Shown: piece after piece, positions 34,431 to 41,682 of the stretch
How positions within the stretch are numbered: position 1 is the stretch's first letter
Layout of the letters: every line of letters begins with the position of its first letter
NCBI GenBank assembly: GCA_945787805.1
Contig: CALZID010000011.1
Location: 1 to 64,000 of the forward strand
Reading direction: 5' to 3'
DNA length: 64,000 bases
Origin: an uncultured Clostridia bacterium
GTDB lineage: Bacteria; Bacillota; Clostridia; Oscillospirales; Acutalibacteraceae
Made by a program: the position numbers and the translations under genes
The notes under the pieces: generated by a model
Database searches by the model: none
Seen by the model: only the letters and a program-made list of their open reading frames with translations
Told to the model about the DNA's origin: nothing

Positions 34431-35567
34431 ATGTCTATATTTGATAAAATCAGCAAACGAAAAGTCTGCACAACCGCGCCGCAAGTCAGGTCATCACATC
34501 AGTTTGATGTTTTGAATTCATTTCCGACAATGGTTTTTCAGCCTGAAATTTATAAAAATCTTCGAGAGTCAATTCCCGTTATTGACACCGCCATTTATAA
34601 GCTTGTCCGTTTGACAGGCGGCTTTAAGGTTGAAAGCAATAACGGCAGAAATCAAAATGACCTTGACAATTTTGTTAAGAACATAAATGTGGGCGTAGCG
34701 GGAAAAGGTCTTCAGCAATTCATTGACATTTATTTTGAACAGCTTCTCACCTACGGCACATCGGCAGGCGAAATTGTTACCGACGGGCAAAATATCGACT
34801 CGCTTTATAATGTGCCCATTAAAAATATTTTGCTTAAACGAAACCCAAAAAATTTCAATGAAATTTTACTTTGCAAGCCGGACGCCTTTGACGGTACGCC
34901 CGTACCGTTTCAAGAGCTTGTTATGTACTCCGCATTAAATCCCGAGCCTGACTCACTTGTGGGCAATTCCGTTCTTAAAAGCTTACCCTTTGTATCGTCA
35001 ATTCTTATGAAGATATATGAGTCAATCGGAGTTAATTGGGAGAGAGCGGGAAATCTTCGCTTTGCAGTTACATATAATCCCGGCTCCGATGTTCTGGACC
35101 GTGCTTATGCAAAAGAGAGAGCGCAGCAGATTGCGAGCGAATGGGCAAGTGCTATGGAATCGGGTTCGGTTAAAGATTTTGTGGCAGTCGGCGATGTGCA
35201 AATTAAAGTAATCGGCGCTGATAATCAGATACTCAACAGCGAAATACCCGTTAGACAGATGCTTGAGCAAATTGTTGCAAAGCTTTCAATTCCGCCTTTT
35301 ATGTTGGGGCTTTCTTGGTCAACAACCGAGAGAATGTCGTCACAGCAGGCAGACGCACTCACAACCGAGATTGACGCCTACCGTCGCATTCTCACTCCCG
35401 TCATTGAAAAGATTTGTTCTCTGTTTCTCAGACTCCACGGCAACAGCGGTGGCGTAAATGTGATTTGGGACGAAGTTACTCTTCAAGACACGGTTGAGCT
35501 TGCAAAGGCAAAGCTTTACAACGCTCAGGCTCAAAGCTTAATTTCGGGAGGTGAAAATAATGACTAA
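34431..35567 (+). CDS. Phage portal protein
   Basis: 378 residues. Portal-family features are RESIPVIDTAIYKLVRLTGG near the N-terminus, a conserved central region GNSVLKSLPFVSSILMKIYE, and SIPPFMLGLSWSTTERMSSQQADALTTEIDAYR typical of siphovirus portals. It would form the dodecameric DNA gate at one capsid vertex and the docking site for terminase. AAAGGAGG precedes ATG. It overlaps the protease gene by 8 bases. Confidence 0.88.
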   Translation: MSIFDKISKRKVCTTAPQVRSSHQFDVLNSFPTMVFQPEIYKNLRESIPVIDTAIYKLVRLTGGFKVESNNGRNQNDLDNFVKNINVGVAGKGLQQFIDIYFEQLLTYGTSAGEIVTDGQNIDSLYNVPIKNILLKRNPKNFNEILLCKPDAFDGTPVPFQELVMYSALNPEPDSLVGNSVLKSLPFVSSILMKIYESIGVNWERAGNLRFAVTYNPGSDVLDRAYAKERAQQIASEWASAMESGSVKDFVAVGDVQIKVIGADNQILNSEIPVRQMLEQIVAKLSIPPFMLGLSWSTTERMSSQQADALTTEIDAYRRILTPVIEKICSLFLRLHGNSGGVNVIWDEVTLQDTVELAKAKLYNAQAQSLISGGENND

Positions 35568-36510
35568 AAAGAGTTATTCATCTTCAAATGCAATTAACAC
35601 CCCCACTGACCTTGATATGAAGCTTATAAACAGCTTTGCTCTTCGGGAGCTTCAAAAGGACGAAGTTTTCTCGTTCAGCGTTATTCTTTGTGACAACGAT
35701 ATTGACCGAGATTTCGAGCGTTTCAGCGAAGAATCCCTTAAAGCTCTCGAAAAACTTTTCGTGGGCAAAACAGGTATTCTCAATCACAGTATGAAAAGCG
35801 AAGACCAGTCTTGCAGAACATATAAGACTCAGCTTATTACCGACCCCGAAAAGAAAACCGTTGACGGAAAGCCTTACACCTATCTCAAAGCGTGGTGTTA
35901 CACCGTTCGCAGTGAGAAAAACGACGCTCTCATTCGTGACATTGAAAGCGGAATAAAAAAAGAAGTCAGCATCAGCTGTTCTTCAACCTCAAGAATTTGT
36001 TCAATTTGTAATGAGCAAAACTGTAATCACATCGCAGGTCGAAAATATAACGGGGAAAAATGTGTTAAAACCATTGACGGCATTACAGACGCTTATGAAT
36101 GGTCTTTTGTAGCGGTGCCCGCACAAAGAAAAGCGGGTGTTACAAAGGCTTATGACAAGGAGAAATCTATGGAAAATATTTTGAAATCAATCAAAGAAGA
36201 CAGTCAGGTAACGCTCAAAAGCAATGAGCTTAAAAAGCTTGCGGCTTACATTGACTCTCTTGCAGAAAAGAGTGCGGACGGTGAACAATACCGCGCACAT
36301 CTCGCTGAAAAAGTAAAAAAAGGCTTTGCTATCGCATTGCCTTCATTAAACGGTGAGTGTGTTGACGAAATCGTGAATACTCTTTCTTCAAAGGAGCTCT
36401 TAAATCTTTGCAAGGCTCTCAAAAAAGAAAGTGCAAAAGTTATTCCCACAACACAGCTTTATAAAGAAGAAAAAGCAAATGACAATCAAAACAGTCAGTT
36501 TAGATTTTAA
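35560..36510 (+). CDS. Phage prohead maturation protease with scaffold-like tail
   Basis: 316 residues from ATG 35560 (GGGAGGTGA six bases upstream). The catalytic region has candidate His in GILNHSMKSED and Ser in KEVSISCSSTS, as in HK97-type prohead proteases. A Cys cluster (CSICNEQNCNHI) with YNGEKC and DAYEWSFVAVPAQRKAGV follows, as in clostridial phage proteases. The C-terminal 110 residues are helical and charged, resembling an internal scaffold. It would process the capsid during head maturation. Confidence 0.8.
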   Translation: MTKKSYSSSNAINTPTDLDMKLINSFALRELQKDEVFSFSVILCDNDIDRDFERFSEESLKALEKLFVGKTGILNHSMKSEDQSCRTYKTQLITDPEKKTVDGKPYTYLKAWCYTVRSEKNDALIRDIESGIKKEVSISCSSTSRICSICNEQNCNHIAGRKYNGEKCVKTIDGITDAYEWSFVAVPAQRKAGVTKAYDKEKSMENILKSIKEDSQVTLKSNELKKLAAYIDSLAEKSADGEQYRAHLAEKVKKGFAIALPSLNGECVDEIVNTLSSKELLNLCKALKKESAKVIPTTQLYKEEKANDNQNSQFRF

Positions 36511-36521
36511 GGAGGATTATT

Positions 36522-37523
36522 ATGGCTAATTTTGAAACAATTAAACTCGATAAAGGACTTTACCACACATCTAAGGGCTTTCTTGCCGAGCTTGAAAGCA
36601 TTGACCCGTCAGAAAACTACAAGGGTACTTCTCTTGAAGGTCTTGACGCATTTGAAAGACAGTTAAAGCGTTTTGACATTAAGGTTAAGGGCCCGAACAG
36701 CGACACAATCGACAAATTCTTTGCAACAACGGATTCAGCGGCACTTTTCCCTGAATATATTGCCCGTGCCGTTCGTCAGAGTGCTGAAAATTCAAGCACA
36801 ATTGACCGAATTGTTGCAACAAAAACAAATATCAACGGTCTTGATTACAGAACAATTGCCTCCATACCGACAGATGAAGAAAAGACGCTTAAAGAAGTGG
36901 CAGAGGGCACGGCAATTCCCGAAACTGTAATTCATACACAGGAAAATCTTGTAAAGCTTAAAAAGCACGGCAGAATGTTAGTTGCATCTTATGAAGCAAT
37001 CCGTTTTCAAAAGCTTGATATTTTCACTGTTACGCTTCGTCAAATCGGCGCACATATTGCCCGTTCACAGTTCAGCGATGCGCTTGAAGTGCTTCTCAAC
37101 GGCGACGGCAATAACAACCCAATGGCAGAAGTTCCGGCACTCGGCAACACCTTTACATATGCCGACCTTGTCAAGCTCTGGGATGCATTGTCACCCTATG
37201 ATATGAACACACTTCTTGCATCTTCAGACGCAGTTGTAACTTTCCTGAATTTGCCGGAATTCAGAGATGCAAAGGCAGGTCTTAATTTCCACGGTAACGG
37301 TTCAATGATTACACCGCTCGGCGCAACGCTTATTAAAGCCGATGATTTATCCGGTGCAATTATCGGTCTTGATAAGAATTATGCTCTTGAAATGGTTACA
37401 GCCGGCGGGGTTCAAACAGAATATGACAAGCTTATTGACCGTCAGCTTGAGCGTGCAACAATCTCTCAAATTTCAGGATTTGCAAAAATCTTTAATGCAG
37501 CAGCAAAAGCAATGGTACTCTGA
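36522..37523 (+). CDS. Phage major capsid protein (HK97-fold type)
   Basis: 333 residues. Order and content fit a capsid protein: an N-terminal helical arm, then FPEYIARAVRQSAENSS, a peripheral domain around GTAIPETVIHTQENLVKLKKHGRMLVASYEAI, and TLLASSDAVVTFLNLPEFRD with a GATLIKADDLSGAIIGLDKNYALEM C-terminal region. AAGGAGGATTATT precedes ATG. It follows the protease by 11 bases. The fold assignment is inference from context and motif layout. Confidence 0.82.
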   Translation: MANFETIKLDKGLYHTSKGFLAELESIDPSENYKGTSLEGLDAFERQLKRFDIKVKGPNSDTIDKFFATTDSAALFPEYIARAVRQSAENSSTIDRIVATKTNINGLDYRTIASIPTDEEKTLKEVAEGTAIPETVIHTQENLVKLKKHGRMLVASYEAIRFQKLDIFTVTLRQIGAHIARSQFSDALEVLLNGDGNNNPMAEVPALGNTFTYADLVKLWDALSPYDMNTLLASSDAVVTFLNLPEFRDAKAGLNFHGNGSMITPLGATLIKADDLSGAIIGLDKNYALEMVTAGGVQTEYDKLIDRQLERATISQISGFAKIFNAAAKAMVL

Positions 37524-37539
37524 TAAAGGGGCGATAATC

Positions 37540-37905
37540 TTGATAGACACTAACGCTGTTTTAGATGTAATTGTTAATGCAAATTCATTATCGTTACAAG
37601 AGCGAGAAAGATTAAGACCTCATTGCTCCGTTGCCTGCAATCAGTTGTCACAAAGACTTAAAAGCGAAGAATATGCAACAGTATCTGCCGTTATTATGGC
37701 GTGTGCGAGCATTGCGCAATATAGATATTTATTGACAACCGAAAGCGATGATGATTTTCTGTCTTTCAAGGCTGGCGACATTACTGTCAGGCAAAACCGC
37801 GAAGCCAGAATTGAGAACGCCGCAAAATTCAAAACCGAATCATTGGTTTCCGCAACGCCTTATCTCACCGATATTGACTTCGTTTTTGAGGCGGTGGAAG
37901 TTTGA
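37540..37905 (+). CDS. Probable phage head-tail connector protein
   Basis: 121 residues from TTG 37540, with AAAGGGG 8-9 bases upstream; a longer in-frame reading to 37342 is a shadow inside the capsid gene. Mostly helical and soluble (LSLQERERLRPHCSVACNQL, TLTTESDDDFLSFKAGDITV-like region). Position directly after the capsid gene fits a gp6/gp15-like head-tail adaptor. The function rests on position and size only. It overlaps the next start by 4 bases. Confidence 0.6.
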   Translation: MIDTNAVLDVIVNANSLSLQERERLRPHCSVACNQLSQRLKSEEYATVSAVIMACASIAQYRYLLTTESDDDFLSFKAGDITVRQNREARIENAAKFKTESLVSATPYLTDIDFVFEAVEV

Positions 37906-38240
37906 AAATAGATGATGTAATAAATAAATTCGGCAGAACAGTACAGTTAAGACTCTTTGTCGGAAGTTGGATGTCAAACAGATTCAATGCTTTTATTCAG
38001 CCTTTGAGATATAAAAACAAGTTATATATGACCGGTGATGTTACGCCAATCGGCAAAAATGCAGAAGATGTTTATTTATATCTCGGTCCGAAGAGTCACA
38101 ATTTTTGCGACTCAATCTCAAAATATAAGATTTGCGATGACTTCGGTAACACATACATCATCGACCGAGCAGAAGAAATCATCTTTAAAAACGAAGTGGG
38201 TTATATCTGGGCCATTATCAGAAAAATAACGGAGGTTTAA
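37902..38240 (+). CDS. Probable phage head closure protein
   Basis: 112 residues starting at TTG 37902 (overlapping the previous stop; GGCGGTGG just upstream). Beta-rich: RTVQLRLFVGSWMSNRFNAFIQPLRYKNKLYMTGDVTPIG, then ISKYKICDDFGNTYIIDRAEEI. Size and position after the connector fit a head-closure (stopper) protein. It was not recognised by sequence; inference from gene order. Confidence 0.5.
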   Translation: MKIDDVINKFGRTVQLRLFVGSWMSNRFNAFIQPLRYKNKLYMTGDVTPIGKNAEDVYLYLGPKSHNFCDSISKYKICDDFGNTYIIDRAEEIIFKNEVGYIWAIIRKITEV

Positions 38241-38242
38241 AA

Positions 38243-38647
38243 ATGATTAGTATTAGTACTCAAGCACATCAGCTTATCAGCGAAATGCGTGAGAGCGTTA
38301 AATTCACAAATGTTACATTTACTTCTGATTATGAATACGGAGCAAAGCCCACACCTGTAACCTCACCCATAATATCAGTTACAATTAAGGGCTGTGAAAT
38401 CGGTGAAAAAGACGAAACAAATAACAGAACCGTTAATTTGACTATTGGCGCAGACATTTATGTGCCTTTTAATTCGGATTACAAATATGTATATTCTTTT
38501 TTTGAAAATATGGTGAATTTTCTTATGTCAACAAATCCGCATCCTATCACCAAGGTCACTTGCGGTGACATAACTTATGACAAAGCATGTGAGGCGCTTG
38601 TGATAAAATCTTCTTTTGTTTTTACAACTACAGAATGGCTACCATAA
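38243..38647 (+). CDS. Probable phage tail terminator-like protein
   Basis: 134 residues. ACGGAGG lies 7 bases before ATG. Sequence SVKFTNVTFTSDYEYGAKPTP, VNLTIGADIYVPFNSDYKYVYSFFENMVNFL is an alpha/beta layout compatible with a minor tail/tail-terminator protein. It is the last gene: a strong terminator follows 3 bases later and no tail tube, tape measure, holin or lysin gene is present. The cassette therefore ends exactly at the head-tail junction. Confidence 0.5.
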   Translation: MISISTQAHQLISEMRESVKFTNVTFTSDYEYGAKPTPVTSPIISVTIKGCEIGEKDETNNRTVNLTIGADIYVPFNSDYKYVYSFFENMVNFLMSTNPHPITKVTCGDITYDKACEALVIKSSFVFTTTEWLP

Positions 38648-40543: not shown

Positions 40544-40686
40544 AGTTTTTTCCTCCGGAATAAAATCCAAAATTACATATAGATTATACTACATTGTTAC
40601 AAAAAAAGAAATATGTAAATAGCCGAAATTTAATCTGTTTTTTTGTACACTGTGTCAAATAAATAAGATTTATATCCTTATTCTTC

Positions 40687-40715
40687 TTGACAAACTATGT
40701 AAACAACTGTATAAT
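40687..40715 (+). promoter_or_regulatory. tRNA-Thr promoter
   Basis: TTGACA (40687-40692), a 17-base spacer and TATAAT (40710-40715), a perfect vegetative consensus 22 bases before the tRNA. Confidence 0.88.
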
Positions 40716-40737
40716 TACTCTTGCATTTTGAATATTT

Positions 40738-40813
40738 GCTGCTATGGCTCAGGCGGTAGAGCACGTCCTTGGTAAGGACGAGGTCACCGGTTCGAATCCG
40801 GTTAGCAGCTCCA
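40738..40813 (+). tRNA. tRNA-Thr (anticodon GGT)
   Basis: 76 nt. Acceptor stem GCTGCTA (40738-40744) pairs with TAGCAGC (40803-40809), discriminator T and encoded CCA (40811-40813). Anticodon stem CGTCC/GGACG with loop TTGGTAA gives anticodon GGT, reading ACC/ACT threonine codons. T-arm CCGGTTCGAATCCGG. It has its own consensus promoter and an intrinsic terminator right after CCA. Confidence 0.97.
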
Positions 40814-40852
40814 AAAAATAAAGAAGCTGTAAAACAGCCTCTTTATTTTTTT
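40814..40852 (+). terminator. Terminator of tRNA-Thr
   Basis: AATAAAGA-GCTGT and ACAGC-TCTTTATT form a long stem with a 3-base loop, followed by TTTTTG. It carries a GCTGTAAAA core like the other hairpins of the window. Confidence 0.85.
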
Positions 40853-40856
40853 GTGT

Positions 40857-41028
40857 TTGTGTCCGCAGGACACAACATCGTTTGCGAACATACTCGCAAC
40901 ATCATTTGACCGATAGGTCAACATCGTTTCTCTTTAGCGGACACAAAACGATGTGATGCTCGGCATCAACGATGTTACACTTATCGGTGTAAACGATGTG
41001 GCTTCGCCAATGATGTTGCACTTCGTGC
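40857..41028 (+). repeat. Array of short palindromes joined by a constant AACATCGTTT linker
   Basis: Seven different small hairpins alternate with a fixed 9-10 base linker. Forward linkers AACATCGTTT lie at 40874, AACATCATTT at 40898 and AACATCGTTT at 40920. The reverse complements AAACGATGT/AACGATGTT lie at 40946, 40968, 40991 and 41009. Hairpins: TTGTGTCC/GGACACAA (40857), GCGA/TCGC (40884), TGACC/GGTCA (40907), GATGC/GCATC (40955), ACAC/GTGT (40977), GGC/GCC (41000), GCAC/GTGC (41018). TTTGTGTCCGC (40856-40866) and GCGGACACAAA (40937-40947) close the left half. The last hairpin overlaps the -35 of the downstream gene. Not CRISPR: units are palindromic, shorter, and inverted halfway. Confidence 0.85.
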
Positions 41029-41044
41029 AAATGCATGGTATAAT
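41016..41044 (+). promoter_or_regulatory. Promoter of the four-helix-bundle gene, overlapping the last palindrome
   Basis: TTGCAC (41016-41021), a 17-base spacer and TATAAT (41039-41044). The -35 hexamer is formed by the end of the last linker plus the first arm of the GCAC/GTGC hairpin. Confidence 0.65.
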
Positions 41045-41068
41045 CTTACTGCAAAAGAGGTGATAGCA

Positions 41069-41425
41069 ATGAAAGAAGATAAACTTTCTGATTTATCTAT
41101 GCAATTATCGGTTGATGTATTGAAACTTACAAAAGAATTGAGAGCAAAACACGAAACTGTTATTTCAAATCAAATTGGCAGAAGTGCCACAAGTGTTTGT
41201 GCCAATATTGCTGAAAGTAAATACGGTCATAGTCGTGCAGATTTCATTGCTAAACTTGAAATTGCGTTAAAAGAAGCAAGTGAAACCAGCAAGTGGCTCG
41301 AAATGCTTTTGAAATCAGACTATATTGATGAAGCGACCTATAAGTCTATTGATAAGACTTGTTCAACGATTAGAATTTTACTGATTGCTTCTATCAAAAC
41401 GGCAAAAAGCAAGTTAATCAATTAG
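41069..41425 (+). CDS. Four-helix-bundle protein (23S rRNA-IVP / bAvd-like family)
   Basis: 118 residues from ATG 41069 (AGAGGTGA five bases upstream; in-frame GTG 41060 is part of that site). Almost entirely helical. The family pattern is VLKLTKELRAKHETVISNQIGRSATSVCANIAES, then SRADFIAKLEIALKEASETSKWLEMLL. Members form pentameric barrels, are basic, and include Avd of diversity-generating retroelements and proteins encoded in 23S rRNA insertions; most have no known job. No reverse transcriptase or rRNA gene is nearby. It is preceded by the palindrome array and transcribed from a promoter in its last unit. Confidence 0.88.
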   Translation: MKEDKLSDLSMQLSVDVLKLTKELRAKHETVISNQIGRSATSVCANIAESKYGHSRADFIAKLEIALKEASETSKWLEMLLKSDYIDEATYKSIDKTCSTIRILLIASIKTAKSKLIN

Positions 41426-41682
41426 TCCAAGGCGATGACTTAAAGTTTTACTATTTTATTGATAATCACAAAAAGGCTTTTGTATGTTTAGAAAAGGCTG
41501 TTGATGAAGCTATTGATTTTGATAAACAAGATAATGCTCAACAATTATTAAAGCATTATGAAAAAGATAACACTATGACTATGTGTGAAAGAATGAAATT
41601 ACTAATGTTAGAACATTATGGATTTTCTGATGAATTCAAAGCAAATCACAAATTTAAGTATTTATTAGATAGATTAGCGTAG
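41425..41682 (+). pseudogene. Gene remnant lacking a start codon
   Basis: An 85-codon open frame ending at TAG 41680-41682 with convincing protein-like composition (GDDLKFYYFIDNHKKAFVCL, ERMKLLMLEHYGFSDEFKAN, YLLDRLA). It has no ATG/GTG/TTG start or ribosome binding site before the ATGs around codon 52. The frame is open back to 41374 inside the four-helix-bundle gene. It is probably the 3' part of a decayed, AT-rich gene, or was once fused or programmed behind the preceding gene. Not recognised. It fills most of the 41426-41800 gap. Confidence 0.5.

What the first reader, a model, noticed from the sequence alone, without database searches (positions are those of the whole stretch)
40857..41425. 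Palindrome array with a constant linker feeding the promoter of a four-helix-bundle (bAvd-like) gene
Between tRNA-Thr and a four-helix-bundle gene lies a 172-bp array of seven different small hairpins, each separated by the same linker. The linker reads AACATCGTTT three times, then flips to AAACGATGT four times. The variable parts are not random spacers: every one is a perfect short palindrome (GCAC/GTGC, GGC/GCC, GATGC/GCATC, TGACC/GGTCA and others). Forward and inverted linkers are complementary, so the array can fold into a large branched structure. The last hairpin supplies the -35 of the gene's promoter. Four-helix-bundle proteins of this family are nucleic-acid-associated but mostly orphan. 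A constant-linker, variable-hairpin array fused to the promoter suggests a dedicated DNA or RNA target, or a self-spreading element.
Basis: partly seen in the sequence, partly recalled or inferred. Interest (0 to 1): 0.85.

Follow-up and report, generated by a model that had tools for sequence, protein, structure and literature searches.

The report
tRNA-end mobile element with palindrome array
The odd palindrome array is most likely one part of a tiny mobile element that sits just behind a tRNA gene and carries a small four-helix-bundle protein; close relatives recur in many gut bacteria, and simpler relatives, whose arms are 7-letter repeats, occur in cyanobacteria and other phyla.

Summary
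In detail: seven short palindromes, a linker that flips (3 forward, 4 reverse), a promoter partly made by the last palindrome, then a PF05635/TIGR02436 gene. It is not unique. All 6 PF05635 genes found in this genome lie behind a same-strand tRNA. Of the 80 best relatives in named genomes, 72 carry the same two-orientation linker array; 59 lie behind a same-strand tRNA (21 anticodons), none on the opposite strand. In 64 of 80, DNA similarity ends near the gene's stop codon, so the unit is terminator, array, promoter, gene. Linker type clusters with protein phylogeny. Arrays also occur without the gene (9 of 17 found by array pattern). More distant PF05635 genes (12 of 12 fetched, of 30 plasmid records) are flanked by inverted arms, mostly heptamer repeats, as in rRNA intervening sequences. 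I read it as a derived, tRNA-end-seeking S23/IVS-type element in which both arms lie upstream and are filled with hairpins. The unit encodes no recombinase; no PF00078 reverse transcriptase was found in this genome. How it moves and what the protein binds are inferred, not shown.

The parts
40738..40813 (+). tRNA-Thr (GGT), the host gene behind which the element sits
40814..40852 (+). palindromic terminator directly behind the tRNA, taken as left end of the element
   Evidence: in relatives the tRNA-to-array gap is 29-45 nt in 53 of 57 parsed cases, by eye one such palindrome each
40856..40866 (+). arm A (TTTGTGTCCGC)
40858..40874 (+). hairpin 0 (contains the local partner of A)
40874..40929 (+). 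first half B: three forward linkers (AACATCRTTT) and two hairpins
   Evidence: 46 of 56 parsed relatives have exactly three forward linkers
40937..40947 (+). centre A' (GCGGACACAAA), reverse complement of arm A
   Evidence: matches A over a longer stretch than the local partner in 51 of 56 parsed relatives, equal in 3, shorter in 2
40947..41030 (+). second half B': four flipped linkers (AAYGATGT) and four hairpins
41016..41044 (+). promoter: TTGCAC (last hairpin), 17 bp, extended -10 TGGTATAAT
   Evidence: not listed by the consensus scan
41069..41425 (+). four-helix-bundle gene, 118 aa, PF05635 / TIGR02436
   Evidence: nearest solved structure 2rld_A E=4.6e-24
41443..41682 (+). open frame without an early start codon behind the gene: possible remnant of a cargo gene
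   Evidence: cargo idea from relatives

Best explanation
The array and the gene are one compact mobile element of the S23/IVS type. Shown here: the unit (terminator hairpin, array in A-B-A'-B' layout, promoter, four-helix-bundle gene) recurs behind many different tRNA genes, in every tRNA case seen in the tRNA's orientation; its linker type clusters with the phylogeny of its protein; gene-less copies exist; simpler relatives in other phyla have the same gene between inverted arms. Inferred: the protein, by homology with the Avd pentamer that works with RNA and a reverse transcriptase in DGRs, recognises its own linker/hairpin array as structured nucleic acid, and this complex is what is inserted at tRNA ends, with borrowed host or foreign enzymes, because neither the unit nor (for PF00078 reverse transcriptase) this genome encodes an obvious engine. 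The palindromes keep the arms foldable while their sequence drifts; the linker is the recognition word. Landing behind a tRNA and bringing or keeping a terminator would make the insertion harmless, and the last hairpin gives the gene its promoter.
For: 6 of 6 PF05635 genes of this genome have a same-strand tRNA 195-388 bp upstream. 59 of 80 close relatives likewise (148-468 bp), 21 anticodons, 0 on the opposite strand; 72 of 80 have the array. Similarity to the window ends at 41391-41430 (stop codon 41423-41425) in 64 of 80, earlier in 11, later in 5. The nearest protein in the 76-row tree is L104 from another genus (97% identical; fork support 97/46), not the paralogue in the same genome (94%). 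Linker labels (13 plus 'other'): 19 changes, least possible 13, 50.5 when shuffled, 0 of 200 as low. Gene-less copies: 9 of 17 arrays found by pattern, plus one in this genome. 12 of 12 plasmid relatives fetched (of 30 records) and 30 of 80 own/genus/family loci have inverted arms flanking the gene above the 99th percentile of 399 control placements. Direct repeats at the ends: 45 bp in L085, 23 bp in L090, 21 bp in L009; terminator copies scoring 38 of 40 in L245/L247 and 34.5 of 40 in L071. No PF00078 match in this genome.
Against: No empty/filled site pair was found for the window itself; its right end is not defined. Long direct repeats are the exception: 12 of 81 loci had any repeat of 13 nt or more across the gene, some of them array or heptamer sequence, and over 84 tRNA-linked loci the own terminator ranks in the top 5% downstream in 7 where 4.2 are expected. 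Only 5 of the 13 named linker groups are a single side of a branch in the tree; labels were assigned by eye and near-copies add to clustering. No binding or movement was observed. Last-R:first-L linker covariation is not significant (0.175 of shuffles as low); first-R:last-L is (0.002). 21 of 80 relatives have no tRNA call upstream (3 of these have under 300 bp of upstream sequence).
Confidence: 0.72

Rival explanations
1. The array is a miniature element moved by something else (for instance a Y1/HUH REP-type transposase) and the four-helix-bundle gene is only a frequent passenger.
For: 9 of 17 arrays found by pattern (10 of 20 with those added) lack the gene. This genome has 5 Y1_Tnp matches (3 over the curated cut-off); 16 of 23 PF05635-positive genus genomes have one against 7 of 16 negative ones, not significant (Fisher p=0.19), counts correlate weakly (rho 0.41, p=0.009).
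Against: Linker clusters with the PF05635 clade. In the 12 plasmid loci read the arms flank this gene. The five Y1 loci of this genome show no such arrays in the 400-500 bp read on each side, and two (L229, L231) have GTAG-type hairpins beside them instead (by eye).
Confidence: 0.13
2. The array is a fixed regulatory region: a folded operator or leader through which the protein controls its own gene.
For: The promoter lies at the array's end and its -35 is in the last hairpin; the linker type clusters with the protein.
Against: Arrays without the gene, some with another ORF behind the same array promoter; two-sided arms in simpler relatives; placement behind 21 tRNA anticodons. The extended -10 lies after the array, so the array is not in the mRNA from this promoter.
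Confidence: 0.1
3. The array is a tRNA-end insulator or processing signal of the host, next to the gene by chance.
For: Arrays and heptamer tracts lie behind about 13 of 27 readable tRNA transcription-unit ends of this genome (by eye).
Against: Of 24 genus loci readable behind the same tRNA-Thr, one has a hairpin array (L114) and three a heptamer tract (L117, L118, L121), by eye; arrays also follow a 5S rRNA and non-tRNA sites (by eye); linker-protein link.
Confidence: 0.05

Closest known systems
23S rRNA intervening sequences (IVS) with S23p ORF, e.g. the Coxiella IVS (PMC4990558, passages read)
   Same: PF05635-type ORF, complementary arms, heptameric repeats beside the ORF (three GACAGAT repeats reported there), suspected mobility
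   Different: Window element is behind a tRNA, not inside an rRNA; both arms are upstream of the gene; arms are linker-hairpin arrays; own promoter
DGR accessory protein Avd (PMC10053308, passages read: alignment of 4DWL with PF05635 structure 2GSC suggests homology)
   Same: four-helix-bundle protein family beside a non-coding repeat region
   Different: no PF00078 reverse transcriptase found in this genome; template/variable repeats not looked for
REP/BIME elements with RAYT (PMC3733652, seen in search listing and abstract start only)
   Same: palindromes in alternating orientation, small, intergenic
   Different: no Y1 gene in the unit; hairpin sequences vary while the linker is constant, the reverse of REPs (REP behaviour recalled)
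Heptamer direct repeats of cyanobacteria and Beggiatoaceae (PMC4679880) and of Xanthomonas/Nostoc (PMC4692102), passages read
   Same: arms of most simple relatives are such heptamers
   Different: the passages read make no link to this protein family; the terms S23 and four helix/four-helix occur 0 times in their main texts
23S_rRNA_IVP genes reported inside cas loci (PMC3936711, passages read)
   Same: same family; the same placements seen here (cas6/cas4 twice, cas10/cmr3)
   Different: there listed as an interesting function in cas loci; here they look like inserted elements with inverted arms

Membership tests
PF05635 / TIGR02436 protein family | profile score above curated cut-off | tested here: met
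   93.4 vs 33.8 bits; 98.3 vs 24 bits
23S rRNA IVS | inside an rRNA gene | tested here: not met
   lies behind tRNA-Thr
23S rRNA IVS | inverted arms on both sides of the ORF | tested here: not met
   both arms upstream in the window (L010 flank score 8.5, control 99th percentile 12); met in 30 of 80 own/genus/family loci and 12 of 12 plasmid loci
23S rRNA IVS | excision by RNase III | not testable with these tools
   -
Diversity-generating retroelement | reverse transcriptase | tested here: not met
   0 PF00078 matches in this genome, 98% complete
Diversity-generating retroelement | template and variable repeats | not tested
   -
REP/RAYT | Y1 transposase gene in the unit, bounded by its own palindromes | tested here: not met
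   unit has no Y1 gene; the 5 Y1 loci of this genome lack these arrays in the flanks read
CRISPR array | repeats separated by unrelated spacers | tested here: not met
   the segments between linkers are palindromes
CRISPR array | cas genes nearby | not tested
   no cas search was run on the window
Known structured RNA (Rfam 15) | match above gathering score in 40600-41500 | tested here: not met
   only the tRNA reaches its gathering score
MITE / mobile element | target-site duplication at both ends | tested here: inconclusive
   found in a few relatives, not for the window

The most novel reading that the evidence does not exclude
PF05635 proteins and their own inverted arms form one bacteria-wide class of recombinase-less mobile elements. 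The heptamer repeats long noted in cyanobacteria and others are (at least often) arms, or solo arms, of this class; rRNA intervening sequences are the members that land in rRNA; the window shows a derived branch in which both arms came to lie upstream, filled with drifting palindromes around a constant recognition word, specialised on tRNA and tmRNA ends, and picked up translationally coupled cargo genes, so that they act as gene cassettes.
Probability: 0.42. Interest if true: 0.92.

Novelty: new variant of a known kind. Interest (0 to 1): 0.8.

Why it matters
It would join three loose ends: what the orphan S23/IVP four-helix-bundle proteins do, where bacterial heptamer repeats come from, and why such genes turn up inside cas, nrd and other operons. 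It would make mobility without an own recombinase, driven by a small nucleic-acid-binding pentamer, directly testable, with a recognition word (the linker) that changes between clades and so gives ready-made specificity controls. If cargo is really carried, it is also a new kind of gene cassette in gut Clostridia.

Tried and rejected
Reverse transcriptase in trans: no PF00078 match in this genome although it holds 6 gene copies; presence across 39 genus genomes not associated (9 of 23 positive vs 4 of 16 negative, Fisher p=0.49), counts weakly correlated (rho 0.34, p=0.04). Y1 transposase as owner of the arrays: see rivals. Virus origin: 7 stretches matched but none encodes a relative in IMG/VR. 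Rfam: nothing above gathering score but the tRNA. Empty site at tRNA-Thr: most relatives read carry other sequence behind that tRNA, so no clean pair. Empty site at smpB-ssrA: several relatives have no element there, but I did not fix a duplication length. Strand from loop types: loops in the two halves seem to lean opposite ways, as expected of inverted halves, so no strand could be chosen (by eye). My first arm detector cut some ORF ends and missed interleaved arrays (20 flanking only, 15 upstream only, 3 both, 42 neither of 80); one search replaced it after I changed the method, and the counts given are. PADLOC scan of 32 cargo proteins: mostly single-member matches, strong ones to PDC-S14 (2.8e-107) and PD-Lambda-1 (8.8e-41), one member each; no system claimed.

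Set make-up and drops: the 81 loci are 6 own, 46 genus (all matches listed) and 29 family loci (a part of the matches listed, whose list was itself cut short); one (L070) was too short. From (35 places, 30 loci) I kept 17 loci as true arrays by eye and dropped 13 whose match lay outside an array; the window, L045 and L015 were added by hand. For cargo, one search found an ORF of 60 aa or more within -30 to +200 of the stop in 60 of 80; 33 start within -20 to +25, of which one (L297) is the rest of the broken gene itself; one search dropped L297 and L248 and listed 36 within -25 to +45; 32 went to the scans, leaving out L279, L291, L294 and L296, which looked like native or low-complexity frames.

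Full report
What is there. The gene is PF05635 (E=1.2e-26) and TIGR02436 'four helix bundle protein'. The nearest solved structure is 2rld (E=4.6e-24); 2gsc (XCC0516) is a weak hit (0.075). In 56 relatives that could be parsed (of 80) the centre matches arm A over a longer stretch than the local hairpin partner in 51, equal in 3, shorter in 2.

It is more than chance. In 422 control windows of the same 64 kb no 300-bp stretch had a 7-mer five times; the 300 bp before the gene's domain match have. Seven hairpins by the same criterion occur in 1 of 422. The RNA fold has z=-6.6 and the bottom-strand DNA fold z=-4.8, with 0 of 200 shuffles as good in either. In 20 arrays of the same linker family, 44 of 99 segments between linkers have perfect stems of at least 5 bp against 0.6% of shuffled segments, although many segments were mis-split by my parser; at the same slot there are up to 12 different stems in 18 arrays. 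So hairpin sequence turns over while the pairing is kept, and the linker stays.

It recurs in the same genome. The search found six PF05635 genes. All six have a tRNA on the same strand 195-388 bp upstream: Glu, Thr, Cys, Asn, Arg, Leu. One (C5, tRNA-Cys) has the same linker; one (C18, tRNA-Arg) has the same A-B-A'-B' layout with a different linker (ATATCA type); two have AT-rich heptamers. A gene-less array with the window's linker follows tRNA-Leu on C4, and three more gene-less arrays with a TATATCATC-type linker follow other tRNAs (L195, L202, L208, by eye). Counting by eye over 27 readable tRNA transcription-unit ends (37 tRNAs), 6 carry the gene, 4 a solo hairpin array and 3 a heptamer tract; 14 carry neither.

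It recurs in the genus and family. PF05635 is present in 23 of 39 genus genomes (22 over cut-off) and 72 of 150 family genomes (70 over cut-off). I examined 81 loci: 6 own, 46 genus, 29 family (the last a part of those listed). In 30 of 81 a tRNA lies upstream within 500 bp, on the same strand in all 30. Of 80 loci with enough sequence, 39 have an upstream inverted-linker array, 27 inverted arms flanking the gene, 3 both, and 11 neither by the automatic test; several of the 11, such as L011 and L045, clearly have arrays by eye. In 399 control placements the upstream test fired 12 times and the flanking threshold was set at the 99th percentile. The upstream type sits at tRNAs in 22 of 39 and behind tmRNA in 2 (L033, L043); the flanking type at a tRNA in 1 of 27.

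Close relatives in named genomes. With the window protein as query the genome collection gave 164 relatives among 280 matched stretches, best 80 kept (60-98% identity), titled mostly Clostridia, Clostridiales or Oscillospiraceae, some Lachnospiraceae or Ruminococcus/Ruminococcaceae, many from ruminant gut; one is titled Lentisphaeria, possibly a binning error. 72 of 80 have the linker at least twice in each orientation; 59 of 80 have a same-strand tRNA 148-468 bp upstream, 0 opposite, 21 anticodons, led by Tyr, Thr, Cys and Trp. Where no tRNA was called, the upstream sequence is in one case 5S rRNA (L243) and in others a non-tRNA stretch, mostly still followed by a terminator palindrome (by eye). 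Between tRNA end and array lie 29-45 nt, by eye one palindromic terminator, in 53 of 57 parsed loci; 10 pairs of loci with different anticodons have similar terminators, which suggests that the terminator can travel with the element. Blastn similarity to the window ends in the stop-codon region in 64 of 80.

The linker belongs to the protein. On a tree of 76 proteins 13 linker labels plus 'other', assigned by eye, need 19 changes (least possible 13); shuffled labels need 50.5 and never as few in 200 shuffles. The window's linker group (4 rows) is one fully supported clade; 5 of 13 named groups are unbroken, the rest need 2 or 3 changes. The window protein is nearest to L104 of another genus (97%), whose array has the same linker but mostly different hairpins.

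Arrays without the gene. Searching for the centre of the array alone in 398 family genomes (30 genomes, 35 places) gave 17 arrays among 30 fetched loci; 8 of 17 have a PF05635 gene within 450 bp and 9 do not. With the window, L045 and L015 added by hand it is 10 and 10. Some gene-less ones have another ORF behind the same promoter (by eye).

The simple form and the wider reach. Among family loci the plain form is about 420 bp: heptamer arm, gene, inverted heptamer arm, for instance between smpB and ssrA (L032, L039, L052, L053, L083) (smpB and other neighbour names are my reading of the sequence, tmRNA for four of these). A tblastn of one such protein against plasmids found 30 records; I fetched 12, ten cyanobacterial, one Gemmatimonadota, one Alphaproteobacteria: all 12 have inverted arms flanking the gene, heptamer-like in most. 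They sit between cas6 and cas4 (two), cas10 and cmr3, nrdB and nrdA, and others; of the ten with annotated neighbours seven run with them and three against. The Coxiella IVS paper reports tandem heptamers beside the S23p ORF and a 28-bp terminal stem (PMC4990558, passages), the same plan.

Ends and duplications. Direct repeats bound a few elements: 45 bp of tRNA-Leu in L085, 23 bp in L090, 21 bp of terminator in L009, most of a 40-nt terminator in L245/L247 (one element in two assemblies, it seems) and L071. L037, with hairpin arms on both sides of the gene, has a 9-bp repeat (TATACTAAA, by eye). These are a small minority; over 84 loci the excess is slight (7 against 4.2 expected).

Cargo. 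In 32 of 80 relatives (33 by the script, one being the rest of a broken gene) an ORF of 60 aa or more starts within -20 to +25 bp of the gene's stop, 11 with a 4-bp overlap. Of 32 nearby proteins scanned, 8 match GNAT acetyltransferases and single ones NUDIX, methyltransferase, AAA ATPase, GIY-YIG and others. Whether they are carried or captured neighbours is open; nearly identical GNATs follow the gene on two contigs (L263, L305). The window has an open frame without an early start behind the gene, perhaps a remnant.

How it may work. The unit encodes no recombinase that I could see. This genome has no PF00078 reverse transcriptase match and five Y1 transposase matches that are not beside such arrays. 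The protein family is held to be homologous to Avd, the DGR partner of RT (PMC10053308, passages). The fixed strand relative to the tRNA in Clostridia hints at a link with the upstream transcript, but in three of the plasmid cases the gene is opposite to its neighbours. I commit to: protein recognises linker/hairpin array, complex inserted at RNA-gene ends with borrowed enzymes; the first half is inferred from co-clustering, the second from distribution only.

Known or new. Paper searches listed no paper that I recognised as describing hairpin arrays or heptamer arms as a general feature of PF05635 genes, or their placement behind tRNAs; only listings and the passages named were read, and only open-licence papers are held. 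The IVS with ORF is known, and mobility was proposed for it before (cited in PMC4990558). So this is a new variant of a known kind, with a broad unifying claim that is testable.

Noticed in passing
L216, L218, L224 (whole loci): PF05635 genes inside cas operons of cyanobacterial plasmids are flanked by inverted arms, so an earlier report of such genes in cas loci (PMC3936711) may be better explained by insertion.
   Followed up: partly
L196, L197, L207, L209, L211 (own genome); L107, L270, L276, L304: Another kind of insert behind tRNA genes: a second copy of the tRNA 3' tail about 100-200 bp downstream, separated by a hairpin-rich stretch, again followed by a terminator (by eye).
   Followed up: no
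L015 1200-1840 (own genome, contig C4): About three tandem copies of a roughly 200-bp unit that includes a tRNA-Leu 3' tail, next to the gene-less array (by eye).
   Followed up: no
L229, L231 (own genome): GTAG-type palindromes next to Y1 transposase matches: a REP/RAYT-like system separate from the arrays (by eye).
   Followed up: no
window 35551-38647: A run of ORFs that look like phage head genes (names recalled, no search run) upstream of the tRNA-Thr.
   Followed up: no
L169, L172, L178, L180: Heptamer-like tracts just before ssrA in genus genomes, without a PF05635 gene in the stretch read (by eye).
   Followed up: partly
L023 1050-1270 (own genome, contig C15): A TATATCATC-linker array close behind another PF05635 gene and a terminator: apparent stacking of one element behind another.
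   Followed up: no
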